Below, one piece after another: positions 4,466-47,532 of a stretch of 47,631 bases of DNA (the stretch's first letter is position 1; every line of letters starts with the position of its first letter). The stretch spans positions 1-47,631 of the forward strand of contig JAOPXU010000347.1 in assembly GCA_025964985.1 (NCBI GenBank). Direction: 5' to 3'. A program made the translations under genes and the position numbers. Source of the DNA: Nocardioides sp. GTDB taxonomy: Bacteria; Actinomycetota; Actinomycetes; Propionibacteriales; Nocardioidaceae. The notes below the pieces were generated by a model, which was not told the origin of the DNA, searched no databases, and saw only the letters and a program-made list of their open reading frames with translations.

Positions 4466-4594
4466 CACGTCGGTCGAGGAGGTCGCCCGCGACCGTCACG
4501 ACAGCGATCCGCCGCAGGGTCCGTGGCCGACCTGACGTGTACCTGCTGTTGTGTGGTCTCGTGACGGTTGCCAGCGCAACCTCCTCGACCAACA
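4466..4594. repeat. composite palindromic repeat element, copy 1
   Basis: CACGTCGGTCGAGGAGGTCGCCCGCGACCGTCACG ... CCGCAGGGTCCGTG ... TGGTCTCGTGACGGTTGCCAGCGCAACCTCCTCGACCAAC. Confidence 0.85.
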
Positions 4595-4599
4595 TGGGA

Positions 4600-4678
4600 A
4601 CCGGATGTGCAGTGCCAGCGTGGGACGGCGGCTAGGGACGTCCGGACCGGATGTGCGGTGCCAGCGTGGGACCGCGGC
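4600..4678. repeat. imperfect direct repeat (33-bp units, 46-bp period) between palindromic copies 1 and 2
   Basis: ACCGGATGTGC(A/G)GTGCCAGCGTGGGAC(G/C)GCGGC at 4600 and 4646. Confidence 0.8.
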
Positions 4679-4692
4679 ACGCGACGTACGCC

Positions 4693-4822
4693 CACGCTGG
4701 TCGAGGAGGTCGCCCGCGACCGTCACGAGACCAGTCCGCCGCAAGGTCCGTGGTCGACCTGACGTGCACCTGCTGTTGTGTGGTCTCGTGACGGTTGCTG
4801 CGCAACCTCCTCGACCGACGTG
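4693..4822. repeat. composite palindromic repeat element, copy 2
   Basis: CACGCTGGTCGAGGAGGTCGCCCGCGACCGTCACGAGACCA ... TGGTCTCGTGACGGTTGCTGCGCAACCTCCTCGACCGACGTG. Confidence 0.85.
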
Positions 4823-4834
4823 TGGTTGCTCCCG

Positions 4835-5467
4835 TCAGGTGCGGACGAGGCGGAGGACGACTCCGCGCGGCGCCGTACGACGGCCGCCGTCGGTCCAGTT
4901 GCCGGTCTCGAGCGCCTGCTCGGCGATCTCGTCGGCCTGGGCGTCGGTGCCGAGCTGGAGGAGCAGGCTCGCGCCGGGGGCGGTGCAGGGCACGGCGGTG
5001 GCGACGCAGCTGCGGGCGACGTCGAGGCCGACCGGGCCGCCGTCGATGGCGACCGTGGGGTCCTCGGGGTAGGTCGCGACCTCGTCGCTGGGGACCCAGG
5101 GCGGGTCGGCGAGCACGAGCGCGAACTGCTCGTCGGGGCGGACGGCGGCGGTGAGCTCGCTCTCCCGCACCTCGACCCGGTGCTCGATGCCCGCGCCCTC
5201 GGCGTTGAGCCGGGCGAAGGAGCAGGCGACGGGGTTGAGGTCGACGGCCACGAGCCGGCGCTGCGTCGCGGCGACGACGAGGAGCCCGATGTGGCCGGCG
5301 CCCGTGCAGAGCTCGAGGACCGGGCCCTCGGGCGCCGACTCGAGGAGCTCCACCGCCCACTGCGACTGCATCGCGGTCCAGGGGCGCGGCTCGAGCACCC
5401 GGTCGTCGTACTCGATGGTCAGGCCGTCGATGCGCACCGAGCGCCGGTCGTGAGAAGACACGTCCAC
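4835..5467 (-). CDS. class I SAM-dependent methyltransferase (HemK/PrmC-like)
   Basis: VLELCTGAGHIGLLVVAATQRRLVAVDLNP and ADPPWVPSDE (NPPY-like motif). Confidence 0.85.
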   Translation of the reverse strand: MDVSSHDRRSVRIDGLTIEYDDRVLEPRPWTAMQSQWAVELLESAPEGPVLELCTGAGHIGLLVVAATQRRLVAVDLNPVACSFARLNAEGAGIEHRVEVRESELTAAVRPDEQFALVLADPPWVPSDEVATYPEDPTVAIDGGPVGLDVARSCVATAVPCTAPGASLLLQLGTDAQADEIAEQALETGNWTDGGRRTAPRGVVLRLVRT

Positions 5468-5559
5468 ACCCTGTCGTGCCCGGGCCGGCGTGTCAGCCTG
5501 CCGAGGGGTGAAGGGGGCGATCGGTACGCGCGGTCCCGCGGGGTCACTACGATGGTGGG

Positions 5560-6201
5560 ATGCCGTCCCGACCCGTGCGTGTTGCGATCATCAACGACTA
5601 CGACATCGTCGTGGCCGGGATCGCCTCCGTGCTCGAGCCCTTCGCCGACCGCGTCCGGGTCGTCGAGCTCGACAGCCGGATGCCGGTCGTCAGCGACGTC
5701 GACGTCGTCCTCTACGACTCCTTCGGCCAGCCGCAGGGTGAGTCGATGGACGTCTCGGCCCAGGTGCAGGACGGCGAGGCCAAGGTCGTCGTCTTCAGCT
5801 GGAACACCGACGAGGAGCTCGTCTCGGCCGCCATCAAGGCCGGCGCCGTCGCCTACCTGCACAAGGGCATGGACGCCGAGGAGCTGGTAGCCGCGATCGA
5901 GGCGGTGCACTCCGGCGAGCAGATCCTGCCCGACGGCCAGCAGGAGGACGCCTTCGGACGCTGGCCGGGCGACGAGTTCGGGCTGAGCTCGCGCGAGTCC
6001 GAGGTGCTCGCCCTGATCTGCCAGGGACTGAGCAACCAGGACATCGCCGAGCGGGCCTTCCTCGGCATCAACACCGTCAAGACCTACATCCGCACCGCCT
6101 ACCGCAAGATCGGCGTCAGCAGCCGCACGCAGGCGGTGCTGTGGGGCATGTCCCACGGGTTCGAGCCCGACCGCCGGCGCGTCGTCGTCGAGACCGACTG
6201 A
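5560..6201 (+). CDS. LuxR/NarL-type regulator with degenerate receiver
   Basis: RVAIINDYDIVVAGIASVLEPFADRV...VVLYDSF...FGLSSRESEVLALICQGLSNQDIAERAFLGINTVKTYIRTAYRKIGV. Confidence 0.9.
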   Translation: MPSRPVRVAIINDYDIVVAGIASVLEPFADRVRVVELDSRMPVVSDVDVVLYDSFGQPQGESMDVSAQVQDGEAKVVVFSWNTDEELVSAAIKAGAVAYLHKGMDAEELVAAIEAVHSGEQILPDGQQEDAFGRWPGDEFGLSSRESEVLALICQGLSNQDIAERAFLGINTVKTYIRTAYRKIGVSSRTQAVLWGMSHGFEPDRRRVVVETD

Positions 6202-6207
6202 CGCCCC

Positions 6208-6885
6208 TCAGACCAGCGAGCCGGTCGCCCGCAGGTGCTCGGCGAGCGCCGCCGGCGTCTCGTGGACGGCGACCGCGCCGGCCTCGCGCAGCACGGCCTC
6301 GGTGATGCCGCCGGTCAGCAGGCCCACGCAGGGGATGCCCGCGTCGGCGGCGGCCCGCACGTCCCACACCGCGTCGCCGACCATCACGGCGCCGCGGCGT
6401 CCGGCGTCGTGGGAGGCCTGCTCGAGCGCCACCGACACCAGGTCGCCGGCCGGCTTGCTCGCCTCGGCGTCGGCCCCGCTCACGAGGTGACCGATGAGGC
6501 GCCGGGCGTCGCCGACCACGTCGAGGAGCCGTCCGGTCATCTCACGCTCGCTGGAGCTGGCCAGCACGATCTGGACGTCGTGGGCGGCCAGCGCCTCGAG
6601 CAGGTCGGCGGCACCCTCGGTGGGCACGATGCGGTCGAAGAGGTCGTCGAGGCGCTCGGGATGGCGGGCGCGGAGCTCGTCGCCGAGCGCCCGCTCGACG
6701 GCGTCGCCGGCGGCTGCGGCCACCAGCCGGTCGCCGCCCATCCCGATGAGCGGGTGCAGGCGGTGCGTCGGCACGTGCAGGCCGACGTCGCGGAACGCCT
6801 GCTGCCAGGCGAGCACGTGGACGTGGACGGAGTCGACGAGGGTGCCGTCGAGGTCGAGGACGGCGGTCCCGGGGGTCTCACGCAC
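6208..6885 (-). CDS. HAD-superfamily hydrolase (phosphatase)
   Basis: VLDLDGTLVDSVHVHVLAWQQAF; LASSSEREM; MVGDAVWDVRAAADAGIPCVGLLTGG. Confidence 0.9.
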   Translation of the reverse strand: MRETPGTAVLDLDGTLVDSVHVHVLAWQQAFRDVGLHVPTHRLHPLIGMGGDRLVAAAAGDAVERALGDELRARHPERLDDLFDRIVPTEGAADLLEALAAHDVQIVLASSSEREMTGRLLDVVGDARRLIGHLVSGADAEASKPAGDLVSVALEQASHDAGRRGAVMVGDAVWDVRAAADAGIPCVGLLTGGITEAVLREAGAVAVHETPAALAEHLRATGSLV

Positions 6886-7294
6886 CGGCGCGCGCCTGGA
6901 GCTCGGCGACCTCGGCGGCGAACCGGTCGGGGTCGGCCACGGTCAGCGTGGCCGCGGGGTGGCGCAGGCGCCCGGTGGGGTCGAGGACGGCCACGGGCTC
7001 GTGGAACGCGACGCAGGCGGCCGCGTCGCCGTTGGTCGCCATGGTGACGCCGCGGTCGGCGAAGGACAGGTGCGGGGGGCCGGCGGTCTTGAGGAAGCCG
7101 AACCCGCCCGTGCGGCGTACGTCGGCGACGTTGGCGAGCGGCGTGTGCAGCCGCCACAGCCCGAAGCGGACCCTCAGGCCCGTCGGGCCGAGCTCGACCC
7201 AGGCGGTCGATCCGGTGATGCCGAGAGCCAGGGCCGGGAGCCGGTAGGCCCGCGCAAAGGCGAAGTCGTGGCGGGTGGAGCCGGGGTCCGTCAT
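6878..7294 (-). CDS. hypothetical protein
   Basis: MTDPGSTRHDFAFARAYRLPALALG...; overlaps HAD gene start by 8 bp, same strand. Confidence 0.65.
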   Translation of the reverse strand: MTDPGSTRHDFAFARAYRLPALALGITGSTAWVELGPTGLRVRFGLWRLHTPLANVADVRRTGGFGFLKTAGPPHLSFADRGVTMATNGDAAACVAFHEPVAVLDPTGRLRHPAATLTVADPDRFAAEVAELQARAGA

Positions 7295-7305
7295 GGCGTC
7301 CGACG

Positions 7306-8028
7306 CTAGGCGGGGCCCGTCTCGTCCGAACCCCCTCGCCGGGTGAGGAGGTGCTCGTGGTGCTCGCGCACCATCGCGGCGGCGACGTCGCGGAGCTTGG
7401 TCTCGGTCGTCGCGCTGACGCGTGTCAGGTAGGCGAACGCGGTGTCCTCGTCGATGTCGAGGCGTTGCATCACGATGCCGAGGGCCAGGCCGATGACGGT
7501 GCGCGACTGCAGGGCGGCGTTGAGGTTCTCGATGCGCCGGGCGTGCCCCAGCGCGAGGCCGGCCTGGGCAGCGAAGAGCTCGGCGAGCTGCTCGGTCTCC
7601 TCGGGCAGCGCGTCGGTGGACCACAGCGCGAGGGCCCCGACGGGGCGCCCGTCGACGCGGACGGGCACGACGACGCAGGACCGGACGTCGAGGTCGACGG
7701 CCGCGGCCCTGACCCGCGGCCACCGGCGGTCCTCGGCCCACCGGTCCACGCGCACCCTCTCGCCGCCGCCCGCGACCGCCTGGAGGCACGGCCCCTCGCC
7801 GAGCTCGTGCTGCAGCGCGTCGAGCGCGCGGGCGACGTCGTCGGAGGCCACGGCCGTCGGCGCCCCGGCGCCGGCGGAGGCGACGGAGACGCCGACGTGG
7901 TCGACCAGCGGCACCGAGGCGCACGCGACCGAGACCAGTCGCTGCAGGGTGGTGTCGAGGTCCTCGAGGTCCGAGAGGTCCTGCGAGACCTGGGTGAGGG
8001 CAGCGACCACGTCGAGGGGTCGAGACAC
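7306..8028 (-). CDS. GAF and ANTAR domain-containing protein
   Basis: GAF-like core (LGEGPCLQAV...SCVVVPVRVDGRPVGALALWS) and ANTAR (ALQSRTVIGLALGIVMQRLDIDEDTAFAYLTRVSATTETKLRDVAAAMV); GTG start inferred. Confidence 0.85.
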   Translation of the reverse strand: MSRPLDVVAALTQVSQDLSDLEDLDTTLQRLVSVACASVPLVDHVGVSVASAGAGAPTAVASDDVARALDALQHELGEGPCLQAVAGGGERVRVDRWAEDRRWPRVRAAAVDLDVRSCVVVPVRVDGRPVGALALWSTDALPEETEQLAELFAAQAGLALGHARRIENLNAALQSRTVIGLALGIVMQRLDIDEDTAFAYLTRVSATTETKLRDVAAAMVREHHEHLLTRRGGSDETGPA

Positions 8029-8159
8029 AGTCGCTCCGTGGCACAGCACGACGGCCGACCGCGGGCCGCCGGCACGGGACGAAGTCGTGGTTGGGCTCCG
8101 CTCGAGGGCAGCCGGAACACTACCAGCGGGTGCCCGCGCCCCCTTCGGGTGAGGCCTCC

Positions 8160-8801
8160 TCAGACGCCGTGCGCGAGACCCCACAGGACGGCCTGGGACC
8201 GGCTGGACACGCCCATCTTGCGGTAGGCGGTGCGGATGTAGGTCTTGACCGAGTTGACCGAGAGGTAGAGGTCGTCGGCGATCTCGGCGTTGCTCAGACC
8301 CCGGCAGATGCCGCTGACGACGTCGCGCTCGCGTGGAGACAGCCCGCCGACCTCGTCGTGGTGGGACTCGCCCGGGACCGGGGTGCCCGGCAGGGACCGG
8401 TGCACCTGCTCGACGGTGAGGAGCAGGTCGCTGACCCCGATGCTGAGCGGCAGCACCCGCACGGCGCCGAGGGCCTGGGCCCGGGCCCGGGCGGGAGCGG
8501 CGGTGTCCCAGGTGAGGGCGACCCGCGGGCAGCCGGGGTCGACCGCGGCCGCCTCGGAGTCGGGGTCGAAGACGTCGACGTGGGCGCGACCGCGCGCGAC
8601 GTCGTCGAGCAGCTCGATGCGGTCCTGGTGGGGCTCGAGCAGGGCGACGAGGCCGGCACGCACGACCTCAGGCACGGACACCGAGACCCGGACGGGGTAG
8701 GCGCGCCGGGCCGCAGGGGGGACGGAGTGCAGCGTCGGCGAGGAGGGCGCGGCCTGCGTCGACGGCGGGGAGGGGGCGAGGGCGGGAAGGGGCGCGAGCA
8801 T
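8160..8801 (-). CDS. LuxR/NarL-type regulator with strongly degenerate receiver
   Basis: HTH LSPRERDVVSGICRGLSNAEIADDLYLSVNSVKTYIRTAYRKMGVSSRSQAVLWG. Confidence 0.88.
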   Translation of the reverse strand: MLAPLPALAPSPPSTQAAPSSPTLHSVPPAARRAYPVRVSVSVPEVVRAGLVALLEPHQDRIELLDDVARGRAHVDVFDPDSEAAAVDPGCPRVALTWDTAAPARARAQALGAVRVLPLSIGVSDLLLTVEQVHRSLPGTPVPGESHHDEVGGLSPRERDVVSGICRGLSNAEIADDLYLSVNSVKTYIRTAYRKMGVSSRSQAVLWGLAHGV

Positions 8802-8964
8802 CGGCCGGACCTTCGTGTGTGCGCCGACGGAGAGAGTCGGGATTGGACCCTGTCGACGTCTGTCCAGCCTACCGCCTTCCGGCGCCGAGTCGAGTCCTGC
8901 GGAACGGCGTTCTGCGCCGCCGCAGCGTCGATGCCCGGGGAGGTGTGCGCTCCGCGCGACCCCG

Positions 8965-9954
8965 TCAGGGGGCGGCGGCGCGCAGCTTGTCGAGCAGCGG
9001 CCCGGCCGCCTCGTCGAGGAACTGCTGCTGCAGCCGGTCGCCGACCTGGACCAGCGCGACGTCGGTGAACCCGGCCTCCCAGAACGCCGACGCGGCGTCG
9101 ACGATCTTGTCGAGGTCGGGGCCGCACGGGATCTGGTCGGCGACGTCGTCGGGTCGCACGAACTGCGACGCGCCCGCGAAGCCGGCCGGGGTCGGGAGGT
9201 CGGCGTTGACCTTCCAGCCGCCGGCGAACCAGCGGAACTGCTCGTGGGCGAGCGTCGTGGCCTCCTCGGCGTCCGGGCCCCAGCAGATGGGGATCTGGCC
9301 GACCGCGCGCGCACCGTCGCCGATCGTGGCCGTGCCGTCGGTCGCGTTCCAGGCCTCGACCAGGTCGGCGCGCGGCTCGACGGCGACGAGGTGGTCGGCC
9401 AGCGGGCCGAACGTCGAGATGGACCGCTCGCCCGAGACGGCGACGCCCAGCGGGACGGGCTGGTCGGGCAGGTCCCAGATGCGGGCGGACTCGACGTCGA
9501 ACCACTCGCCGCGGTAGTCGACCAGCTCGCCGGTGTGCAGCGCCCGGATGATCTCGATGGCCTCGACCAGCATCGCCTGCCGGGCGCCGACCGAGGGCCA
9601 GCGCTGGCCGACGACGTGCTCGTTGAGGTTCTCCCCGCTGCCCAGCCCGAGGGTGAAGCGGCCGTCGGAGAGCAGCTGCATCGTCGCTGCCTTCTGGGCC
9701 ACGACGGCCGGGTGGTAGCGCAGGGTCGGGCAGGTCACGTAGGTCATCAGGTCGACCCGCTCGGTCACCTGTGCGACGGCACCCAGCACCGTCCAGGCGT
9801 ACGGCGCGTGGCCCTGCTCGGCCAGCCAGGGCGAGTAGTGGTCGCTGGAGACCTCGAAGTCGAAGCCGACCTGCTCGGCCTGCTGGGCGTAGGAGACGAG
9901 CTGCTTGGGCCCGCTCTGCTCGGTCATCAGCGTGTAGCCGAAACGGGTGCTCAT
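8965..9954 (-). CDS. LLM-class (probably F420-dependent) oxidoreductase
   Basis: RFGYTLMTEQSGPKQLVSYAQQAEQVGFDFEVSSDHYSPW...GLGSGENLNEHVVG. Confidence 0.85.
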   Translation of the reverse strand: MSTRFGYTLMTEQSGPKQLVSYAQQAEQVGFDFEVSSDHYSPWLAEQGHAPYAWTVLGAVAQVTERVDLMTYVTCPTLRYHPAVVAQKAATMQLLSDGRFTLGLGSGENLNEHVVGQRWPSVGARQAMLVEAIEIIRALHTGELVDYRGEWFDVESARIWDLPDQPVPLGVAVSGERSISTFGPLADHLVAVEPRADLVEAWNATDGTATIGDGARAVGQIPICWGPDAEEATTLAHEQFRWFAGGWKVNADLPTPAGFAGASQFVRPDDVADQIPCGPDLDKIVDAASAFWEAGFTDVALVQVGDRLQQQFLDEAAGPLLDKLRAAAP

Positions 9955-10052
9955 CCCTCGACGCTCGCAGCGGCCCCCGCGACCGACATCACCCCTCGGC
10001 ATGAGTGCATCCGGGTCACGCCCCCGCGGCCCGTCTGCCAGGGTTGACCCCC

Positions 10053-10754
10053 GTGAGAAGTGCAGGACCGGGCGGAGCGCGCCCGTTGCGGGTGGCGATC
10101 CTCAACGACTACGAGATCGTCGTCGCCGGCATCGCCGCCGTGCTCGAGCCGTACGCCGACAGGGTGTCGGTCGTCGAGACCACGGCCGGTCTGCCCGTGG
10201 TCAGCGACGTCGACGTCGTCCTCTACGACACCTTCGCCCAGCGCCAGGTCGACGCGATGCCGATCGACGACCTCGTGCCCGACGACGCCCGGCTCGTGGT
10301 CTTCAGCTGGAACGGCGACGCGGCGCTGGTGGCTGCCTCGCTGGCCGCCGGCGCCTCGGGCTACGTGTCCAAGTCCAGCAGCGCGCAGGAGCTGGTCGAG
10401 GCCCTCGAGCGGGTGCGGGCCGGCGAGCGGGTGGTTCCCGACGACCTGCTCGTGGCCGAGGGGGACGTCGTACCGGCCGACCCCGACCACGGGGCCGACC
10501 ACGACCAGGAGCTGGGCCGGTGGCCGGGCGACGAGTTCGGGCTGAGTGCGCGCGAGTCGGAGGTGCTGGCCCTGATCTGCCGAGGGCTGAGCAACGAGGA
10601 GATCACCGCGCAGGCGTTCATCGGCATCAACACCGTCAAGACCCACATCCGCACGCTCTACCGCAAGATCGGGGTGGCCCGGCGCACGCAGGCGGTGCTG
10701 TGGGGCCACGCCCACGGGTTCGAGCCCGACCGCGGCCGGCGCGTCGAGGGCTGA
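10053..10754 (+). CDS. LuxR/NarL-type regulator with degenerate receiver
   Basis: RVAILNDYEIVVAGIAAVLEPYADRV...FGLSARESEVLALICRGLSNEEITAQAFIGINTVKTHIRTLYRKIGV. Confidence 0.9.
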   Translation: MRSAGPGGARPLRVAILNDYEIVVAGIAAVLEPYADRVSVVETTAGLPVVSDVDVVLYDTFAQRQVDAMPIDDLVPDDARLVVFSWNGDAALVAASLAAGASGYVSKSSSAQELVEALERVRAGERVVPDDLLVAEGDVVPADPDHGADHDQELGRWPGDEFGLSARESEVLALICRGLSNEEITAQAFIGINTVKTHIRTLYRKIGVARRTQAVLWGHAHGFEPDRGRRVEG

Positions 10755-10764
10755 GGACCGGCGC

Positions 10765-11208
10765 TCAGCGCACGGCGTCGAGGTGCTCCAGGGACTCCTG
10801 GAGGCTCTCGGCCACGAAGTCGCCGAGCTGGACCATCGAGGGCAGCGCGAAGCGCGCGGCGCCCAGCCGCGGGGTGAAGCGGGCCTCGTAGGTCACCTCG
10901 CTGCCGCCGGCCGGGGTCGCCCGGACGGTGAAGGTGTCGACCACCTCGAGGCCGGTGGCGTCGCCGCGCAGCTGCAGGCAGTGGCCCTCGACGTACTCGG
11001 TGACGACGTAGTCGACCTCGGTACGACGGCCGCGGAACTTGGCGACGTTGTGGTAGGTCGTGCCCACACCGCCGTCGCCGCTGAGGCGCTCGGTCGAGAC
11101 CGTTGGCGGGTCCCACTCCTCGGTGGTGGTGAAGTCGGCCAGGAACCGCCACACCGCCTGGGGCGACTGGTCGACGGTGATCGTGCGTTCCACGACGGGC
11201 ACGCGCAC
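10765..11208 (-). CDS. SRPBCC (START/Bet v1-like) family protein
   Basis: VERTITVDQSPQAVWRFLADFTTTEEWDPPT...VTYEARFTP. Confidence 0.8.
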   Translation of the reverse strand: MRVPVVERTITVDQSPQAVWRFLADFTTTEEWDPPTVSTERLSGDGGVGTTYHNVAKFRGRRTEVDYVVTEYVEGHCLQLRGDATGLEVVDTFTVRATPAGGSEVTYEARFTPRLGAARFALPSMVQLGDFVAESLQESLEHLDAVR

Positions 11209-11388
11209 AGCTCCTTCCGAGAGGGAGTTCCGGGTTCGGCTTGCCTTCCGACCATCGCCCCGCGGGCGCGACGGTGGCCGCACCCGCAGGGGTGGCGCAG
11301 GTCTGCCTAACCTCGGCGGTGGTCACTCGTTGGGGTGTCCGGGTGCCCAGGTGGGTGCCGGGCCCGTCGCTCTGAGAAGGGGGAGACC

Positions 11389-11787
11389 ATGTCCTACGGC
11401 GTCATGGCGTCGAAGAACGGCCAGCTGCTCGTCGAGACCCGACGGGTCGGCGACGGCGGTCGCACCGAGGCCGCTCTCGCGCGCTTCGCCGAGCGGCGCG
11501 GCCGCAACTGGAGCGTGGGCCGGTTCACCCTGACCCGCCTGCACCTGTCCTACCTGCCGGGGGCGTCCTCGCGCGGCGCCCCGGCGCTCAACATCGACCT
11601 GGCCGACATCGAGGGCGTCGAGATCGGGGAGGGCCGGGTGACCAAGACCGTGGGGATCCGCACCGCCACGCACGTGATGCGGTTCCGCTGCACCGGCGCC
11701 CCGGCGTTCGCGCAGGCCGTGGCCGCTGCCGCCGAGGAGGGCCGGCGCGCCAAGCGCACGACACCGCGGGGTCCGACCGCCCGCTGA
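11389..11787 (+). CDS. hypothetical protein
   Basis: ATG start preceded by GAAGGGGGAGA; coherent 132-aa ORF MSYGVMASKNGQLLVETRRV. Confidence 0.65.
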   Translation: MSYGVMASKNGQLLVETRRVGDGGRTEAALARFAERRGRNWSVGRFTLTRLHLSYLPGASSRGAPALNIDLADIEGVEIGEGRVTKTVGIRTATHVMRFRCTGAPAFAQAVAAAAEEGRRAKRTTPRGPTAR

Positions 11788-11803
11788 GGTCGGCCCGTCG
11801 ACC

Positions 11804-13861: not shown

Positions 13862-13886
13862 GGACACCTCCTGGGACGAGACCAAT

Positions 13887-15547: not shown

Positions 15548-15606
15548 GCCCGCACCCTCTCAGTCGCCGCGCCGCCCGAGGGTCACCCGGGTGGCGCGGC
15601 GCCACC

Positions 15607-15650
15607 CCACGTTGGTCGAGGAGCTCGCGCTGGCGAGCGTCACGAGACCA
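15607..15650. repeat. solitary left half (arm) of composite palindromic repeat
   Basis: CACGTTGGTCGAGGAGCTCGCGCTGGCGAGCGTCACGAGACCA. Confidence 0.8.
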
Positions 15651-15663
15651 CTCGACCTGAGCA

Positions 15664-15793
15664 CACGTTGGTCGAGGAGCTCGCGCTGGCGAGCGTCACG
15701 AGACCGATCTCCGCAAGGTCCGTGCGTACTCGACCAAGACCCTGCGGTCGATGGGTCTCGTGACGGTTCCTAGCGGAACCTCCTCGACCAACG
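15664..15793. repeat. composite palindromic repeat element, copy 3
   Basis: Left arm stem GCTCGC/GCGAGC, right arm stem GGTTCC/GGAACC; inner CCGCAAGGTC...GACCCTGCGG. Confidence 0.88.
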
Positions 15794-15803
15794 TTCGGTG
15801 AGC

Positions 15804-15937
15804 ACACGTCGGTCGAGGAGCTCGCGCTGGCGAGCGTCACGAGACCAACCACCGCAAGGTCTGTGCGGACCTGATCGTGAACCCTGCGGCCGGATGGTCT
15901 CGTGACGCTCCCTAGCGGGAGCTCCTCGACCGACGTG
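15804..15937. repeat. composite palindromic repeat element, copy 4
   Basis: Left arm stem GCTCGC/GCGAGC, right arm stem GCTCCC/GGGAGC; inner CCGCAAGGTC...ACCCTGCGG. Confidence 0.88.
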
Positions 15938-15961
15938 GGGTGGAGTCGAGCGGCCGGCTCT

Positions 15962-25993: not shown

Positions 25994-27849
<1,856 letters not shown>

Positions 27850-27853
<4 letters not shown>

Positions 27854-34203: not shown

Positions 34204-34323
34204 CACACGTCGGTCGAGGAGGTCGCCCGCGACCGTCACACCGCAGGGTCCGCTCGACCGGACCACACGTCGGTCGAGGAGGTCGCCCGCGACCGTCACA
34301 CCGCAGGGTCCGCTCGACCGGAC
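34204..34323. repeat. two 60-bp tandem copies of palindromic-repeat left half-element
   Basis: CACACGTCGGTCGAGGAGGTCGCCCGCGACCGTCACACCGCAGGGTCCGCTCGACCGGAC repeated with exact 60-bp period, leading into a third copy. Confidence 0.92.
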
Positions 34324-34456
34324 CACACGTCGGTCGAGGAGGTCGCCCGCGACCGTCACGAGACCACATCACCGCAGCGTCCGTGCGCGAGGCGACCTGC
34401 GCCTGCGGTCAGTTGGTCTCGTGACGGTCGCCAGGGCGACCTCCACGACCGACGTG
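34324..34456. repeat. composite palindromic repeat element, copy 5
   Basis: CACACGTCGGTCGAGGAGGTCGCCCGCGACCGTCACGAGACCA ... TTGGTCTCGTGACGGTCGCCAGGGCGACCTCCACGACCGACGTG. Confidence 0.88.
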
Positions 34457-39787: not shown

Positions 39788-39796
39788 GCCTGGACG

Positions 39797-39833: not shown

Positions 39834-39860
39834 CTCGAGCGGTGGTGCGGGGTCGAGACG

Positions 39861-40436: not shown

Positions 40437-40879
40437 TGCGCATCCTCCTTCAGGGTCTGCTGCGTCTGAGGCAGCTGCGGGTTGGCCTTCTTCAGGTTCT
40501 TGCGACCGATCGACGCGAGCACGGCGGCGGCCACGCCCCAGAGCGCCGCCACGATGAAGGCAGCGAGCTCGAGGATGATGATGTTGTCGAGCAGCCACAT
40601 GAGGGCGATCGACAGGAACAGGATCAGCATGAAGGCGGAGAATCCCGCCGCGGCGAGCATGCCGGCACCCTTGCCGGCCTTGGTCGCCTCCTGCTTGAGC
40701 TCGGTCTTGGCGAGCTGCACCTCGGCGCGGAACAGGTCGCTCAGGTCCGAGGTGACCTCGCCGACGATCTCGCCGAGGCTGCGGGTCTCACCGGGACCGG
40801 CGTGGCTGCTGCCGGTCTGGGTGCCGCCGACAGCGTGCGAGCCGCCGGCCGTCCCGACGTTCGGGTCGATGCCGCTCAC
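40412..40879 (-). CDS. phage-holin-family/DUF1469-like membrane protein
   Basis: RSLGEIVGEVTSDLSDLFRAEVQLAKTELKQEATKAGKGAGMLAAAGFSAFMLILFLSIALMWLLD. Confidence 0.8.
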   Translation of the reverse strand: MSGIDPNVGTAGGSHAVGGTQTGSSHAGPGETRSLGEIVGEVTSDLSDLFRAEVQLAKTELKQEATKAGKGAGMLAAAGFSAFMLILFLSIALMWLLDNIIILELAAFIVAALWGVAAAVLASIGRKNLKKANPQLPQTQQTLKEDAQWAKAQRS

Positions 40880-41670
40880 GAGCCGGCTCCGGAGTACGGG
40901 CCTCCGGGCTGGGCCGGCGGGGTCTCAGGAGCGAGCGGGTCGAACGCCTGCGTCGGCGTCGGGTCGTACGTCGGGGTGCCCGGGGGCGACGACGGGGGCG
41001 GCGAGCTCGGGAAGCCCGACAGCGGGTCGCCCTCGGCCGTGCCGACGTTGCGTCCGGCCGACGTGCCCGGGGTGACCGGCGTGGCGAGGCCCGGGGTGCT
41101 GTAGCTCGGCGTGTCGCCGTAGGTCTCGCCGTAGGTCGGGGTGCCGGTGCCAGCGAAGCCGGACGTGGTCGGCTGGCTGGGCTGGCTGCTGGAGCCCGGG
41201 CCGCTCGGGGCGTCCTTGACGCCGCGGGCCACTCGACCGGCGACGACGCCGGCCACGAGTGCGCCGGCCAGGAACACGCCGGGACGACGCCGAGCGAAGT
41301 CGCGCACGTCCTCGAGCAGCTCGGTGGGCTCACGGCCGTCGAGGTACGACGTCAGCGAGCGGGCGTGCTGGGCGACCTCGCGGGCGACGTCGGAGGCCAG
41401 GCCTCCACTGCTGTTCTGGGCCATCTGGTCCAGGTCGTCGCCGAGGGTGCCGAGGGTGCTCACGAGCTTGTCGCGCTGCTGGCGCGACTGGTCGGAGACC
41501 TGCTCGGTCACCTGCGTGCGGGCCTCGCCGGCCAGCGACTTGGCCTGGTCCTTCGCTTCGCTCGCGACCTTGGCGGCCTCGCCCTGCGCGACGCCGGCCA
41601 CGTGCTTGCCCTCGTCGGCCGCGGTGGACGCGGCCGCTTGTGCCTTCTCCGTGGTGGGAGTGTCGGTCAT
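40876..41670 (-). CDS. hypothetical protein with LEA/apolipoprotein-like amphipathic helix region, TM-like segment and disordered tail
   Basis: AASTAADEGKHVAGVAQGEAAKVASEAKDQAKSLAGEARTQVTEQV...; P/S/T/G-rich C-terminus; 4-bp overlap with downstream gene. Confidence 0.7.
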   Translation of the reverse strand: MTDTPTTEKAQAAASTAADEGKHVAGVAQGEAAKVASEAKDQAKSLAGEARTQVTEQVSDQSRQQRDKLVSTLGTLGDDLDQMAQNSSGGLASDVAREVAQHARSLTSYLDGREPTELLEDVRDFARRRPGVFLAGALVAGVVAGRVARGVKDAPSGPGSSSQPSQPTTSGFAGTGTPTYGETYGDTPSYSTPGLATPVTPGTSAGRNVGTAEGDPLSGFPSSPPPSSPPGTPTYDPTPTQAFDPLAPETPPAQPGGPYSGAGS

Positions 41671-41722
41671 GGTGCCTCCTCTAGGTGTGGTGTGCCGGTG
41701 CCCGCGTCTCCGGCGATGACAC

Positions 41723-43327
41723 TCACCTGCGAAGGTGAGTCCGGTGGTGCAGCAGCGCGGCGCGGGCCGCGTTGTGGCCGGGGGCGCCGTGCACGCCGCC
41801 TCCGGGGTGGGCCGAGGCCGAGCCGAGGTAGAGACCGCGCACGCCCGTCTCGGGCCGGCCGAGCAGCGCCGGGACCGGCCGCAGCACGAGCTCCTGGTGG
41901 AGCTGCGCCGTACCTCCGTTGAGGGAACCGCCCACCAGGTTGGCGTTGCGCCGCTCGAGCTCGCGCGGTCCGAGGACGCGTCGCGAGATGATCCGCGAGC
42001 CGAAGCCGGGGGCCAGTCGCTCGATGCGCGCCTGGATGCGGTCGCCGAAGCGCTCGCAGTCGTCGCGGTCCCAGACGCCGCGGATGGTGCCGTCGCCGCC
42101 GTCGGTGACGGGGGCGTCGTCCTGGGGGACGTGGGTGTAGGCCCAGAACGACTCGGTGCCCGCCGGCGAGCGGCTGGGGTCGCTGGTCGTCATCTGGCCG
42201 GTGAGCAGGAACGGGTCGGCCGGGATGGTGTGGGCCGCGACCTGGGCCAGCGCCATCGCCATCTGGTCGACGGAGTCGGCGACGTGCACGGTGCCGGCGG
42301 CGTACGGCGGGGGCGAGGCCCACGGGACGGGGCCGTCGAGCGCCCAGTCGACCTTGACCGTGCCGGGGTCGAGCTCGAACGACTTCATGCCGCGGCGCAC
42401 GCGGGCCGGCACGTGCTCGTCGTCGAGCAGCCCGGTCCAGGACCCGCCGCCGCCGAAGAGGTGCAGCGCGGAGACGTCGGCAACGACCGCGCGCCGGGCG
42501 TCGTGGCGCTCGCCGTGCTCGGTCTCGACCGCGACGGCGCGACCGCCCTCGACCACGACCCGCGTGGCCTTGGTGGAGGTGCGCACCTCGCCGCCGACCG
42601 ACTCGAGCCGGCGGCGCAGGGCGCCGGCGAGCTGGCCGGCGCCGCCACGCGGCACCGGGAAGCCGACGGTCTGCCCGAGCATCGTCAGCAGCAGGCCGAA
42701 GACGCCGGAGCCCGGGGTGCCGATCGGGATGTCGGCGTGCCCGGCGTTGCCGCTGATGAGCAGGCCCGCGGCGTCGCCGCCGAAGCGGTGCCGCCCGATG
42801 GCCGAGGCCGGGGTGAGCAGGGTGCGCACGAGGTCGAGACCGCCGGCGGCGCGCAGCGCGGCGAGGACCCGCACGCCGGCGCGCACCGGCGGGAACGGTC
42901 CGGTGAGGCCGTCGACCAGCGGGCCGCCGATGCGGTCCCACATGGCGCACAGCTCGAGCCAGGCGGCGCCGTCGCCGGCGTGCTGGTCCTCCATCAGCCC
43001 GGCGGTGACGTGGCGGTCGCGGTGCAGGACCGCCCAGCGCCCGTCGGGCAGCGGGTGGCCGAGCACGGCCGGTGCGTGGCACCACTCGAGCCCGTGGTCC
43101 TCGAGCCGCAGCGGCGCGAGACCGGCCGAGAGGGGCGCGAGCGGGTAGAAGGCGCTGAAGGTGTCGTGGACGAAGTCCGGGTGGAGCTCGCTGTCGCTGC
43201 GCACGCCGCCGCCGACCTCGTCCTGGGCCTCGACGACCAAGACCGACCAGCCGGCGTCGGCCAGGTGGTTGGCCGCGACCAGCCCGTTGGGGCCGGCCCC
43301 GACGACGACGGCGTCGTGGGTGGTCAC
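41723..43327 (-). CDS. NAD(P)/FAD-dependent oxidoreductase (phytoene desaturase/CrtI-like)
   Basis: AVVVGAGPNGLVAANHLADAGWSVLVVEAQDEVGGGVRSD; C-terminal LYLGSASAHPGGGVHGAPGHNAARAAL. Confidence 0.9.
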   Translation of the reverse strand: MTTHDAVVVGAGPNGLVAANHLADAGWSVLVVEAQDEVGGGVRSDSELHPDFVHDTFSAFYPLAPLSAGLAPLRLEDHGLEWCHAPAVLGHPLPDGRWAVLHRDRHVTAGLMEDQHAGDGAAWLELCAMWDRIGGPLVDGLTGPFPPVRAGVRVLAALRAAGGLDLVRTLLTPASAIGRHRFGGDAAGLLISGNAGHADIPIGTPGSGVFGLLLTMLGQTVGFPVPRGGAGQLAGALRRRLESVGGEVRTSTKATRVVVEGGRAVAVETEHGERHDARRAVVADVSALHLFGGGGSWTGLLDDEHVPARVRRGMKSFELDPGTVKVDWALDGPVPWASPPPYAAGTVHVADSVDQMAMALAQVAAHTIPADPFLLTGQMTTSDPSRSPAGTESFWAYTHVPQDDAPVTDGGDGTIRGVWDRDDCERFGDRIQARIERLAPGFGSRIISRRVLGPRELERRNANLVGGSLNGGTAQLHQELVLRPVPALLGRPETGVRGLYLGSASAHPGGGVHGAPGHNAARAALLHHRTHLRR

Positions 43328-43779
43328 CGGAGCGAGTCGGCCCGGTTCTCGGCGATGAACGCGAGACGCTGCAGGGTCTCCACGTTGCGCACGCCGATCT
43401 GGAGGTCGCGCAGCGGCTTGGGCATCAGCTTGCCGGGCCCGGCGACGGCGTCCTCGGTGATCGTGACCTGGCAGCCCTCGGCGTGCGCCTCGATACGCAG
43501 GTCGACGTTGGCCTCGCCGACCGGCCAGCCGCGGGCACGCAGCAGCAGGTGGGACGGCGCGGTGGCCTCGAGGACCTCGGTGTTGTCGTCGATGAGGGCC
43601 GGCCAGACGCCGACCGAGTGGTGCAACTTGCTGCCGACCACCGGCCAGGCGTCGTCGACCTCGCGCATGCGGGAGGCGCCGACCACCCAGACCGGGTAGA
43701 GCCAGCCGTCGGACAGCACGTCCCAGACCTGCTGCGGGGTGGCTCGGACGACACGACGTCTAGTGCTCATGTCTCCCAA
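43324..43779 (-). CDS. SRPBCC family protein
   Basis: TRRRVVRATPQQVWDVLSDGWLYPVWVVGASRMREVD; 4-bp overlap with downstream FAD oxidoreductase. Confidence 0.85.
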   Translation of the reverse strand: MGDMSTRRRVVRATPQQVWDVLSDGWLYPVWVVGASRMREVDDAWPVVGSKLHHSVGVWPALIDDNTEVLEATAPSHLLLRARGWPVGEANVDLRIEAHAEGCQVTITEDAVAGPGKLMPKPLRDLQIGVRNVETLQRLAFIAENRADSLR

Positions 43780-43857
43780 CCCTCCAACGACCCGGCGGCG
43801 GCAGCCTCACCTCAGGAGGGGAACCGTGCCCCGCGGTCCGCTGGGTACCCAGGACGC

Positions 43858-44235
43858 ATGAGTGTCTGGGGAACGGGTCCGTTCGACAACGACGACGCCG
43901 CCGCGTGGAGCGACGACCTCGACGACCTCGACGGGGCCACCGAGGCCGCGGCGTTCGCCGAGCGGACGCTGCGCTCCGGCGACGAGCCGGGACGCGTGGT
44001 CGCCGCGGCGGCGTGGCTGGCCTCCGGGGTGCCCGGCGTGCCCGACCCGGTCGACGGACCGACCACCCCGCCGCCGACCCCCGACGCCGACCTGGCCGAC
44101 GCCGCGGCCGGTGCCCTCGGCACGGTGCTGGCCGACGACGAGTGGGCCCACCAGTGGTCCGACCCCGCGGAGCGCGAGGCCGTGCGCGCCTACGTGCGCA
44201 GCCTCATCGAGACGTGGGAGGTCACCATCGGATGA
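43858..44235 (+). CDS. DUF4259-like protein
   Basis: MSVWGTGPFDNDDAAAWSDDL signature. Confidence 0.85.
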   Translation: MSVWGTGPFDNDDAAAWSDDLDDLDGATEAAAFAERTLRSGDEPGRVVAAAAWLASGVPGVPDPVDGPTTPPPTPDADLADAAAGALGTVLADDEWAHQWSDPAEREAVRAYVRSLIETWEVTIG

Positions 44236-44269
44236 CGGCTCCCGCTGCGCACCTGGTAGTCACGTCCCT

Positions 44270-46105
44270 GTGACCGAGCCCTCCGACCTCCCCGTGGACC
44301 CCGTGGACCCCGTCGACCCCGTGGACCCCGTCGACCCCGTCCAGCGCGAGTGGGTCGACGCCGACGACCAGCCCCACCGCGCCCCCGACGCCACCGTGCG
44401 GCAGGTGCTCGCCGTGATGGGCGAGCCGCCCGCCGACCTCGAGAGCACTGCTCCGGTCGTGACGCGGCGCGGCCGCGCGACCGGCCTGCGCGGCGACGTA
44501 CGGCTGGAGGAGGGTGGGACCGCCCGGCTCGACGACGTCGTGCCCGACGACCTGCCGTTCGGCTACCACGTGCTCGTCGACGACGCCGGGTCCGAGCGGC
44601 GCCTGGTCGTCTCCCCCGGCCGGTGCTACGTGCCGCCGGTGCAGAGCTGGGGCTGGGCCGTGCAGCTCTACGCCGCCCGCTCGACGGGCAGCGCCGGCGT
44701 CGGTGACCTCGGCGACCTGCGCACCCTGCGCGAGTGGACCGAGCGGCTCGGCGGCGGGTTCCTCGTCGTCAACCCGCTGCACGCGGTCGCGCCCGTGCTG
44801 CCGCTGGAGACCAGCCCCTACCTCCCCGCGACGCGCCGCTTCCGCAACCCCGTCTACCTCCACGTCGACGAGGCACCGGCCCAGCCCGTCGAGGGCATCG
44901 ACCGCGACGCGGCCTGGACCCACAAGCTCGACGTCCTGCGCCGCCGCTTCGACGCGCGCACCGACGACGCCGGGTTCGACGCCTGGCGCTCCGAGCAGGG
45001 CACCCCGCTCGAGCACTTCGCCACGTGGTCGGTGCTGGCCGCCGAGCACGGCGGCGACTGGCACGCGTGGCCCGAGGAGCTGCACGACCCCGACGGCGAC
45101 GCCGTGCGCCGCCTGGTCGAGGAGCGCGGCGCCGAGGTCACCTTCCACGCCTGGCTGCAGTGGCTGCTGTCCGAGCAGCTGCGTGAGGCCACCGGCGACC
45201 TCACCGTCATCCAGGACCTGCCCATCGGCGTCTCCGGTGGCGGCGCCGACGCGTGGGCCTGGCAGGGCGTCATGGCCGACGGCATCACCGTCGGCGCACC
45301 GCCCGACGCGCTCAACACCGTCGGGCAGGACTGGGGCTCCCCGCCGTTCGTCCCGTGGCGGCTGCGCGCGGCCGACTACGAGCCGTTCATCCAGTCCGTG
45401 CGCGCCACCATCGCCGGCGCCGGCGGGCTGCGCATCGACCACGTCATGGGCCTCTTCCGCCTCTGGTGGATCCCGGACGGCTCCGGCCCGCAGGACGGCT
45501 GCTACGTCCGCTACGCCGCCGACGACCTGCTCGACATCGTCTGCCTGGAGTCGCACCGCGCCCAGGCCGTCGTCGTCGGCGAGGACCTCGGCACCGTCGA
45601 GGAGCACGTGCCCGAGGAGCTCGCCTCGCGCGGCATCCTGAGCTACCGCGTGCTCTGGTTCGAGGACGACGACCCCACCGAGTGGTCCGCGGGCTCGCTG
45701 GCCACCGTCACCACCCACGACCTGCCCACCGTCGCCGGCCTGTGGACCGGCTCCGACGTCGACGACCAGCTCGAGGCCTCCGACATGGCCGAGGACGACG
45801 TGCGGTCGGGACGCGAGGAGCTGCTCGAGCGCCTGCGCCGCGACGGGCTCGCCGACGACGCCACCCCGCAGGACGCCGTCGCCGCGGCGTACGCGCAGCT
45901 CGGCCGGGCGCCGTCGCTGCTGCTGTCGTTCTCCCTCGAGGACGCCGTCGCCGAGGAGCGCCGTCCCAACGTCCCCGGCACCACCGAGCGCGACAACTGG
46001 CGCGTCCCGCTGAGTGTCCCCGTCGACGAGCTCGACGGGCACCCGGGTCCGGAGGCGCTGCTGCGGGCGGCCGGGGTGCTGCGGGATTCACCGGCCGGCC
46101 GGTGA
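44270..46105 (+). CDS. malQ: 4-alpha-glucanotransferase
   Basis: GH77 signatures SWGWAVQLYAARSTGSAGVGDLGDLR, GVMADGITVGAPPDALNTVGQDWGSPPF, LRIDHVMGLFRLWWIP, VVGEDLGTV; GTG start. Confidence 0.92.
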   Translation: MTEPSDLPVDPVDPVDPVDPVDPVQREWVDADDQPHRAPDATVRQVLAVMGEPPADLESTAPVVTRRGRATGLRGDVRLEEGGTARLDDVVPDDLPFGYHVLVDDAGSERRLVVSPGRCYVPPVQSWGWAVQLYAARSTGSAGVGDLGDLRTLREWTERLGGGFLVVNPLHAVAPVLPLETSPYLPATRRFRNPVYLHVDEAPAQPVEGIDRDAAWTHKLDVLRRRFDARTDDAGFDAWRSEQGTPLEHFATWSVLAAEHGGDWHAWPEELHDPDGDAVRRLVEERGAEVTFHAWLQWLLSEQLREATGDLTVIQDLPIGVSGGGADAWAWQGVMADGITVGAPPDALNTVGQDWGSPPFVPWRLRAADYEPFIQSVRATIAGAGGLRIDHVMGLFRLWWIPDGSGPQDGCYVRYAADDLLDIVCLESHRAQAVVVGEDLGTVEEHVPEELASRGILSYRVLWFEDDDPTEWSAGSLATVTTHDLPTVAGLWTGSDVDDQLEASDMAEDDVRSGREELLERLRRDGLADDATPQDAVAAAYAQLGRAPSLLLSFSLEDAVAEERRPNVPGTTERDNWRVPLSVPVDELDGHPGPEALLRAAGVLRDSPAGR

Positions 46106-46110
46106 ATCCC
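46083..46110. terminator. 28-bp perfect palindrome containing the malQ stop codon
   Basis: GGGATTCACCGGCC|GGCCGGTGAATCCC. Confidence 0.7.
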
Positions 46111-46116
46111 TCACTC

Positions 46117-46158
46117 GGCCGATGAAGCTTCGTCGTCCAAGTACGGGCTTCATCGGCC
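46117..46158. terminator. second inverted repeat between convergent genes
   Basis: GGCCGATGAAGC (46117-46128) ... GCTTCATCGGCC (46147-46158), 12-bp perfect stem. Confidence 0.7.
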
Positions 46159-46173
46159 CAGCACCAGCGCGAC

Positions 46174-46605
46174 TCAGAGCCCCAGCCGGTCGCGCACGAC
46201 GTCCACGAGGCCCAAGTGGGTCACTGCCCAGACCGCGACGCCGGCGAGCAACAGCCCGCCGATCGTGACGACGGCCGAGCTCACGGGGTGCTGGCGGGCG
46301 TGGGCCCAGGCCTCGCGGGCCTTGCGCTTGAAGGTGTCGAAGAAGCGCTGAGCCCAGGCGAACTCGGTCGACCAGATCCACAGCCCGAGCAGGACCGGCG
46401 GGATGGTGAGCGGGCCGGGCAGCACGGCCAGCGCGACGCGGGCCGCGACGCAGAGCAGGCCGGCGACGAAGACGCCGATGCGCCACACCTGGGCCAGGCC
46501 CGGGCTCGAGCGCATCCGGTGGCGGAACCCGCCGTGCGGGACGTCGACGGAGCGTCCGAGGCCGTCGGTGCAGTCGGGGCAGGACTCGACGGTCGAGGTG
46601 GTCAT
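46174..46605 (-). CDS. TIGR02611-like/PGPGW-type small membrane protein
   Basis: VWRIGVFVAGLLCVAARVALAVLPGPLTIPPVLLGLWIWSTEFAWAQRFFDTFKRKAREAW. Confidence 0.75.
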   Translation of the reverse strand: MTTSTVESCPDCTDGLGRSVDVPHGGFRHRMRSSPGLAQVWRIGVFVAGLLCVAARVALAVLPGPLTIPPVLLGLWIWSTEFAWAQRFFDTFKRKAREAWAHARQHPVSSAVVTIGGLLLAGVAVWAVTHLGLVDVVRDRLGL

Positions 46606-46686
46606 CCGCACCGGTACCCGCGGCCGGCGCAGTCCTTCCCCCTTGAGGTCGGTGTCGCGATACCGGCTCCTTGTGACGCTGGGGCC

Positions 46687-47241
46687 ATGCCCACCGACCT
46701 CACCGGCAAGAAGATCGCGTTCATCGTCAACAACTCCGGCGTCGAGCAGCCCGAGCTGACCCGGCCCTGGGACGACCTCGGCGCGGCGGGGGCCACGACG
46801 ACGCTGATCGCCCCCGAGGCGGGCGAGGTCAAGGCGTTCAACAACGACGTCGAGCCCGGTGACACGTTCACCGCCGAGCTCGCCGTGTCCGACGCCGACC
46901 CGGCCGACTACGACGCCCTGGTCATCCCGGGCGGCACCACCAACGCCGACAGCCTGCGCCTCGACGCCAGTGCCGTCGCGTTCGTGAAGGCGTTCGCCGA
47001 GGCCGGCAAGCCGGTCGCGGCCATCTGCCACGGCCCCTGGATGCTCGTCGAGTCGGGCGTCGTCGAGGGCAAGACCCTGACGTCGTACGCCTCGCTGCAG
47101 ACCGACGTCCGCAACGCCGGCGGCAGCTGGGTCGACGAGGAGGCCTGCACCGACGACGCGAAGGGCTGGACCCTCGTCACCAGCCGCGACCCCGACGACC
47201 TCGACGCCTTCGTCGAGGCGGCCGCTGCCGCCTTCGCCTGA
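46687..47241 (+). CDS. DJ-1/PfpI-family type 1 glutamine amidotransferase-like protein
   Basis: GKKIAFIVNNSGVEQPELTRPWDDL; nucleophile elbow AICHGPWMLVE. Confidence 0.92.
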   Translation: MPTDLTGKKIAFIVNNSGVEQPELTRPWDDLGAAGATTTLIAPEAGEVKAFNNDVEPGDTFTAELAVSDADPADYDALVIPGGTTNADSLRLDASAVAFVKAFAEAGKPVAAICHGPWMLVESGVVEGKTLTSYASLQTDVRNAGGSWVDEEACTDDAKGWTLVTSRDPDDLDAFVEAAAAAFA

Positions 47242-47261
47242 CGCACACGACGCACTGCACC

Positions 47262-47393
47262 CACGCTGGTCGAGGAGGTTGCGCCAGCAACCGTCACGAG
47301 ACCAGACCCCCGCAGGGTCCGTGATCGACTCGAGCTGCAACTGCGGTCGAGTGGTCTCGTGACGGTCGCAGGGCGACCTGCTCGACCGACGTG
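47262..47393. repeat. composite palindromic repeat element, copy 6
   Basis: CACGCTGGTCGAGGAGGTTGCGCCAGCAACCGTCACGAGACCA ... CTGCGGTCGAGTGGTCTCGTGACGGTCGCAGGGCGACCTGCTCGACCGACGTG. Confidence 0.88.
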
Positions 47394-47532
47394 TGCGGAC
47401 GCCGTACCGGTGCGCAGGGCGACCTCCTCGACCGACGTGTGCGGACGCCGTACCGGTGCGCACGGCGACCTCCTCGACCGACGTGTGCGGACGCCGTACT
47501 GGTGCGCAAGGCGACCTCCTCGACCGACGTGG
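47373..47532. repeat. 46-bp tandem repeat (3 full units plus partial) carrying the outer end of the palindromic element
   Basis: GCGACCTCCTCGACCGACGTGTGCGGACGCCGTACCGGTGCGCACG at 47373, 47419, 47465 and partial at 47511. Confidence 0.93.

What the first reader, a model, noticed from the sequence alone, without database searches (positions are those of the whole stretch)
4466..47532. Dispersed ~130-bp composite palindromic repeat family with covarying arm hairpins
Six full copies (4466-4594, 4693-4822, 15664-15793, 15804-15937, 34324-34456, 47262-47393) share one architecture: CACGTYGGTCGAGGAG-[hairpin]-CGTCACGAGACCA - CCGCANGGTCCGTG - variable centre - (ACC)CTGCGG in most copies - TGGTCTCGTGACG-[hairpin]-CTCCTCGACCRACGTG. 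The arm stems come in at least five versions that keep pairing: GGTCGC/GCGACC, GGTTGC/GCAACC, GCTCGC/GCGAGC, GGTTCC/GGAACC and GCTCCC/GGGAGC, with 2-4 nt loops. Compensatory change on both sides argues that the hairpin itself is maintained (as DNA or RNA). All copies are intergenic; three of four loci lie between convergent genes and the fourth lies downstream of zur. This resembles REP/BIME or MITE logic, but I recognise no named family and see no transposase or RAYT gene in the window.
Basis: partly seen in the sequence, partly recalled or inferred. Interest (0 to 1): 0.85.

Follow-up and report, generated by a model that had tools for sequence, protein, structure and literature searches.

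The report
REP-like hairpin repeats flanking HNH-nuclease genes
A short hairpin-forming DNA repeat is scattered more than a hundred times over some Nocardioides genomes, and in related species it clusters on both sides of multi-copy, DNA-damage-controlled HNH nuclease genes, which suggests that a nuclease other than the known REP transposase spreads it.

Summary
The repeat family is real. All six ~130-bp elements are at the stated places. Their arm (GGTCTCGTGACG-[hairpin]-CTCGACC) occurs 233 times in this incomplete Nocardioides genome against 0 for the reversed control; 104 of 105 arms examined are intergenic. Arm stems covary within and between species. Two of the four window loci are empty in a related species. 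The architecture is a REP doublet (REPIN/MITE-like): two inverted arms 47-50 bp apart around a conserved centre.

The classical partner, a RAYT (Y1 transposase), is absent from all 101 Nocardioides genomes sampled. Instead the arms go with multi-copy DUF222-HNH nuclease genes ("13E12 family") that carry LexA/SOS-like boxes. In this genome 7 of 9 HNH copies begin at one arm. In 80 named loci picked only for the HNH protein, a covariance model of this genome's arms gave 53 hits, all within 0.7 kb of the HNH gene, 49 oriented as in the 130-bp element. REP-like motifs are 14-23 times denser in intergenic DNA beside HNH genes than elsewhere.

Best reading: a REP/REPIN-like family whose autonomous partner is an HNH-endonuclease gene. 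The association is shown; that the nuclease moves the repeats is inferred. New variant of a known kind.

The parts
4466..4594 (+). 130-bp element, copy 1 (arms 4472-4505 and 4555-4590; left inner arm degenerate)
   Evidence: lies in an interval (4456-4821) absent at the same gene junction in G101
4693..4822 (+). 130-bp element, copy 2 (arms 4699-4732 and 4782-4816)
   Evidence: same empty site in G101
15607..15651 (-). solitary left arm, stem GCTCGC/GCGAGC
15664..15793 (+). 130-bp element, copy 3 (arms 15670-15705 GCTCGC, 15754-15789 GGTTCC); folds as outer stem, two side hairpins and inner stem
   Evidence: whole 15602-15950 interval missing in G101 and G044, replaced by a different REP pair in G081
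15804..15937 (+). 130-bp element, copy 4 (arms 15811-15846 GCTCGC, 15896-15931 GCTCCC)
   Evidence: z-score -12.9
34204..34323 (-). two 60-bp tandem repeats with truncated left arms (34212-34242, 34272-34302)
   Evidence: (family D8)
34324..34456 (+). 130-bp element, copy 5 (arms 34332-34365 and 34415-34450)
47262..47393 (+). 130-bp element, copy 6 (arms 47268-47303 and 47353-47387)
47394..47532 (+). three 46-bp tandem copies of the outer half of the right arm
   Evidence: family D9

Best explanation
The ~130-bp repeat is a REP-doublet (REPIN-like) non-autonomous element of Nocardioides. Each arm is a REP-like unit: a conserved outer stem GGTC/GACC around a local hairpin whose stem sequence is free to change as long as it pairs. 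Two arms in inverted orientation, 47-50 bp apart, make one element that as a single strand folds into a long stem with two side hairpins. The autonomous partner is most likely not a RAYT but the multi-copy DUF222-HNH endonuclease unit ('13E12 family') of the same genomes: arm (inner end facing in) - SOS-like box - HNH gene - right-hand end, often with further arms downstream facing back. Proposed working: when DNA is damaged, LexA releases the HNH gene; the nuclease recognises the folded arm in single-stranded or cruciform DNA and cuts near it; repair or copying then spreads both its own unit and the gene-less arm doublets into intergenic DNA. SHOWN: family, copy number, covariation, empty sites, absence of Y1 transposases, arms at the start of the repeated HNH unit, inverted arms flanking HNH genes, SOS-like boxes. 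INFERRED: that the HNH protein binds or cuts the arm, that it mobilises the doublets, and the strand chemistry.
For: (1) 233 arms in this genome, 27 of 101 genus members carry this arm version, 0 control matches. (2) Y1_Tnp absent in 101 of 101 genomes while control genomes ring. (3) Ten or so copies of a DUF222-HNH gene, 82-93% identical to one another, in this genome; 7 of 9 with a readable 5' side carry one arm at a fixed distance from the ATG, and similarity between copies starts at the arm's outer edge. The perfectly paired GCTTCC stem was seen only on HNH units among the arms fetched. (4) Other multi-copy families: arm at a fixed position in 11 of 12 (G044), 7 of 7 (G025) and 6 of 6 (G088) copies, each with its own species' arm version. 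(5) 80 named loci fetched only by HNH protein: REP-like motifs 2.99 per kb upstream and 1.87 per kb downstream of the HNH gene against 0.13 per kb in other intergenic DNA; intergenic regions with a motif 35/68, 16/58, 3/99 (Fisher 8e-14 and 1e-5); orientation 77:3 upstream, 30:8 downstream, i.e. inner ends face the gene as in the 130-bp element; reversed control 0. (6) Independent of that regular expression: a covariance model from this genome's arms finds 53 matches in those 685 kb, all within 666 bp of the HNH gene (15 loci, 8 genomes), 49 of 53 in the facing orientation. (7) SOS-like box upstream of 46/73 HNH genes against 51/517 other genes, p = 7e-23. (8) HNH catalytic residues invariant in 34 proteins.
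Against: No movement was observed and no binding or cleavage is known. Only 7 of 233 or more arms in this genome sit beside an HNH gene. The HNH unit shares one end with the 130-bp element; its right-hand hairpin is different. HNH relatives are in 249 of 346 genomes of the class, many without this motif, and several HNH families (G036, G081, Nocardioides sp. 1609) have few or no arms by this motif. A non-Y1 transposase in an unassembled part (89.7% complete, 426 contigs) is not excluded. No target duplication could be read because the nearest genomes are only about 80% identical.
Confidence: 0.5

Rival explanations
1. The arms are landing pads or homing sites: DUF222-HNH units insert at existing REP-like repeats, as some insertion sequences do, and the repeats themselves are spread by something else.
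For: HNH proteins are often site-specific homing nucleases; REPs are known targets of insertion sequences (PMC1525189). Flanking arms face the gene just as the arms of a doublet do, as if the gene sat between them.
Against: The arm belongs to the repeated unit: similarity starts at its outer edge in this genome and in G088, at a fixed distance from the gene, and one stem version was seen only with HNH units here. No right arm follows the unit in this genome (DN lists empty).
Confidence: 0.22
2. Mobilisation by an unseen transposase of another kind (an ordinary MITE of a DDE element), or of a Y1 type too distant for Pfam.
For: 130-bp length, 40-bp inverted ends, dispersed copies and empty sites fit a MITE. 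The assembly is incomplete.
Against: No Y1 match even at E = 10 here or in the genus. Stem sequences free to change but paired do not fit a duplex-binding DDE transposase. The doublets share an end with the HNH unit. 17 REP-rich class members from five families all have HNH relatives and none has Y1_Tnp.
Confidence: 0.15
3. Cis-acting RNA or DNA element: the arms are kept as transcription terminators or insulators (shielding an SOS nuclease from read-through, or ending convergent transcripts), and copying is incidental.
For: Intergenic, some excess between convergent genes, strong hairpins, placed upstream of HNH promoters.
Against: No T-runs; orientation beside HNH genes is nearly fixed although the hairpin is almost symmetric; empty orthologous sites show the junctions work without it; tandem and truncated copies look like amplification debris.
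Confidence: 0.1
4. The covariation is mutational: hairpin-templated correction (quasipalindrome template switching) keeps arms palindromic without selection on structure.
For: Stem changes are always symmetric; tandem copies keep identical arms while their centres differ (C95, C111).
Against: It explains pairing but not the fixed 47-50-bp spacing, the conserved outer flanks or the link with HNH genes.
Confidence: 0.03

Closest known systems
REPIN / RAYT system (Bertels and Rainey 2011, PMC3116915)
   Same: Short palindromic units in inverted doublets of fixed spacing, intergenic, high copy number, species-specific versions, linked to a nuclease gene that carries the same unit at its end.
   Different: No RAYT (Y1 HUH transposase) in the genus; the linked gene is a multi-copy DUF222-HNH endonuclease, not a single-copy Y1 gene; the element has its own conserved directional centre.
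GTAG- and CGTC-tagged REPs, 'REPtrons' (PMC3733652)
   Same: Palindromes in head-to-head pairs; that survey notes that CGTC REPs seem to lack a dedicated transposase, so an orphan REP class was already known.
   Different: No actinobacteria or Nocardioides are named in that paper's text; a CGTC beside the stem occurs here but overlaps it; a candidate partner gene is offered here.
REP13E12 / 13E12 family (DUF222-HNH) of Mycobacterium tuberculosis
   Same: Repeated DUF222-HNH genes (PMC10589994, citing Gordon 1999) with LexA control (PMC4181829).
   Different: There the name means a repeated gene; no link to REP-type palindromes was found in the papers searched.
ERIC/IRU and other MITEs (own knowledge)
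   Same: About 130 bp, imperfect palindrome, intergenic, no gene inside.
   Different: Sequence unrelated; here the arms hold local hairpins that vary independently.
IS200/IS605 elements
   Same: Asymmetric mobile unit with a hairpin at each end, as in the HNH unit.
   Different: Nuclease is HNH, not Y1; chemistry unknown.

Membership tests
REPIN (RAYT-mobilised REP doublet) | short palindromes in inverted doublets with fixed spacing | tested here: met
   34 of 35 doublets with 47-50 bp between arms
REPIN (RAYT-mobilised REP doublet) | high copy number, extragenic | tested here: met
   233 arms; 104 of 105 intergenic
REPIN (RAYT-mobilised REP doublet) | RAYT (Y1 HUH transposase) gene in the genome, flanked by the same REP | tested here: not met
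   PF01797: 0 of 101 genus genomes; none here even at E = 10; controls ring
CGTC/GTAG-tagged REP | unpaired GTAG or CGTC at one end of the stem | tested here: inconclusive
   CGTCAC follows the left hairpin, but its first C pairs in the stem
MITE | terminal inverted repeats | tested here: met
   about 40-bp inverted ends (I16)
MITE | target-site duplication | tested here: inconclusive
   empty sites found, but flanks too diverged to read junctions
MITE | ends shared with an autonomous element | tested here: inconclusive
   HNH unit shares the left end only
13E12 family (linked gene) | DUF222 plus HNH domain, multi-copy | tested here: met
   HNH over cut-off in three proteins, DUF222 in one of five by Pfam and in L109; 15 matches in this genome
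13E12 family (linked gene) | LexA/SOS control | tested here: met
   SOS-like box sequence in 46/73 against 51/517; expression not tested
Rfam RNA families | match above gathering score | tested here: not met
   0 matches
IS200/IS605 | Y1 TnpA | tested here: not met

The most novel reading that the evidence does not exclude
A second, RAYT-independent solution to the REP problem: DUF222-HNH endonucleases act on folded REP-like hairpins and spread them, with their own genes, under SOS control, across Nocardioides and perhaps other actinobacteria. The long-unexplained 13E12/DUF222 genes would then be the selfish partner of a palindromic repeat family.
Probability: 0.42. Interest if true: 0.86.

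Novelty: new variant of a known kind. Interest (0 to 1): 0.74.

Why it matters
REPs are among the most abundant bacterial repeats, and the only known partner enzyme is the Y1 transposase RAYT; REP classes without one were an open question (PMC3733652). DUF222-HNH genes are among the most numerous genes of unknown purpose in actinobacteria, including the 13E12 family of mycobacteria. If the two belong together, one hypothesis addresses both: a mobile unit with an SOS-controlled HNH nuclease whose end is a REP hairpin. It is directly testable with a cleavage assay and a damage-induction experiment.

Tried and rejected
Rfam scan: nothing. Y1_Tnp/RAYT in own genome, genus and class: absent in Nocardioides. 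Pfam DUF222 as a probe finds only 1 of the HNH genes here, so protein queries were used. I first suspected a full-length transposon in G058 where two arms lie 1.17 kb apart; one arm proved to lie inside a DUF222-HNH reading frame, which opened the lead. Plasmid and phage records: no match to the element. Right-hand hairpin of the HNH unit: no more stable than sequence downstream of other genes, so I do not claim it as a structured end. AlphaFold model of the HNH protein (pLDDT 83) and Foldseek: only weak matches to McrA/HNH nucleases, no known fold for the DUF222 part; PDB by sequence: nothing significant. Class-level count correlation between HNH and REPs: the search scored at most five candidates per genome, so copy numbers were not usable; only presence/absence was used. 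An intergenic control was needed because HNH genes sit in long intergenic regions; it was done and the enrichment stayed.
Full report
What is there. The six elements stand at the stated coordinates. Each is [arm]-centre-[arm inverted]. One arm reads, from the inside outwards, GGTCTCGTGACG-stem-loop-stem-CTCCTCGACC-RACGTG. In the whole assembly (4.48 Mb, 426 contigs, 89.7% complete) the exact pattern GGTCTCGTGACG-N8..24-CTCGACC occurs 233 times and its reversed control never. From 152 kb around about half of these places I collected 105 arms, which include one low-quality match at C20:7124, and 35 doublets. Arm spacing is 47-50 bp in 34 of 35. The centre has its own inverted repeat and a direction (CCGCAGGGTCCGTG...CACCTGCGGT), and doublets occur in both orientations. 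All but one of the 105 arms lie outside called genes; the gene pairs around them are 18 same-direction, 11 convergent and 2 divergent (own simple codon-based gene caller).

Structure. Among 34 distinct 36-nt arms of this genome, 97.6% of pair cells are standard pairs (shuffled 86.0 +/- 1.2) and 42 cells carry changes on both sides (shuffled 18.8 +/- 2.3; slid controls 2-16), at stem pairs 2, 4 and 5. In a second set, mostly from other species, changes on both sides appear at five of six stem pairs and one outer pair, 39 cells against 11.9 +/- 2.4. The shuffles do not model relatedness, so these are not probabilities. Folded as DNA single strands, the six full elements have z-scores from -4.0 to -12.9; copy 3, whose two arms have different stems, folds into an outer stem, two side hairpins and an inner stem. 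So the unit that is kept is the local hairpin, not perfect symmetry of the whole.

It is an insertion. At the junction of the CDGSH-protein gene and the methyltransferase gene, G101 aligns with the window up to 4455 and again from 4822 with a gap of only 2 bases in between, and the two elements are absent. At the zur junction G101 and G044 lack the window's 15602-15950 segment, while G081 holds a different REP pair there, with GAGACA...TTCC arms. The relatives are about 80% identical, too far to read target duplications.

Partner gene. REPs are expected to go with a RAYT. Pfam Y1_Tnp finds none in this genome (even at E = 10) nor in any of 101 genomes of the genus, while control genomes ring. 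Following an arm in G058 that lies inside a reading frame led to DUF222-HNH genes. This genome has about ten copies, 82-93% identical to one another. Seven of the nine copies with a readable 5' side carry exactly one arm (stems GCTTCC four times, GGTCGC three times) at a fixed distance from the start codon; copies resemble each other from the outer edge of the arm (CCGCACCNCACGTYGG) to shortly after a GC-rich hairpin beyond the stop codon, and their flanks differ outside. So the arm is one end of a repeated, presumably mobile, HNH unit.

Generality. A scan of GTDB genomes with an HNH protein profile gave 80 named loci, chosen with no regard to repeats. There, REP-like motifs (GGTYTCG-N4..30-CRACC) number 80 in 26.8 kb of intergenic DNA upstream of the HNH gene, 38 in 20.3 kb downstream, and 4 in 30.3 kb of other intergenic DNA; reversed control 0. 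Orientation is 77:3 upstream and 30:8 downstream, inner ends facing the gene. Loci from one genome are not independent; at least 15 genomes contribute upstream motifs. As an independent check, a covariance model built from this genome's arms alone found 53 matches in the 685 kb, every one within 666 bp of the HNH gene, 32 of 35 upstream and 17 of 18 downstream in the facing orientation, in 15 loci of 8 genomes. The two 700-bp flanks are 16% of that sequence.

SOS link. A LexA-type box (CGAAC-N4-GTTCG, up to 2 mismatches) lies upstream of 46 of 73 HNH genes and 51 of 517 other genes (p = 7e-23). In M. tuberculosis the 13E12 genes are reported LexA targets (PMC4181829), and REP13E12/HNH/DUF222 is a recognised repeat (PMC10589994).

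Wider distribution. In 346 genomes of the class, 17 genomes from five families have at least 100 motif matches and at least ten times their control; all 17 have an HNH relative, none has Y1_Tnp (57 of 346 have it overall). HNH relatives are present in 249 of 346, so presence alone is weak evidence. In the genus sample all 27 genomes with this arm version have five or more HNH matches, and none of the 14 genomes with fewer than five has it.

How it may work. Shown: a hairpin end shared by gene-less doublets and HNH units, facing arms around HNH genes, SOS-like boxes, no Y1 enzyme. Inferred: the HNH protein acts on the folded arm and so spreads both. The main rival is that HNH units home into existing arms; fixed distances, similarity beginning at the arm edge and the HNH-specific stem favour the arm being part of the unit, but strain-level empty sites are needed. 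A terminator role may be added on top and is not excluded.

Novelty. No paper in the searched library ties DUF222-HNH genes to REP-type palindromes; that library lacks most subscription journals, so priority is not certain. The repeat works like a REPIN; it is not filed as one because the defining RAYT was tested and not found.

Noticed in passing
window 26371-26618: Run of 21-bp direct repeats inside a minus-strand gene (25994-27853) for a CheR-methyltransferase/PAS protein; they encode a heptad-like coiled-coil linker between the domains.
   Followed up: partly
window 1774-2406, 5560-6201, 8160-9314, 10005-10754: Several paralogous LuxR/GerE-type response regulators within 9 kb on both strands, with 71-89% identical DNA stretches that could recombine.
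   Followed up: partly
L092:4846-4880 (G058): An arm lies in frame inside a DUF222-HNH gene, in the linker before the HNH domain, without breaking the reading frame.
   Followed up: partly
L091:1174-1771 (G000 contig 343): Tandem array of four 130-bp elements plus a fifth left arm with a period of about 141 bp, GGTTCC left arms and GCTCGC right arms throughout.
   Followed up: no
G391, G399, G367, G323, G475: Genomes of four other actinobacterial families with 100-432 REP-like motifs and no Y1_Tnp; G391 has only one HNH match, so it may test or break the HNH model.
   Followed up: no
L278:5790-9497 (G044) against window 43770-44338: In N. rubriscoriae an HNH gene flanked by arms lies in a 3.7-kb segment where the window has 0.57 kb, with another gene inserted beside it; G101 has 4.3 kb of other sequence at the same place.
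   Followed up: partly
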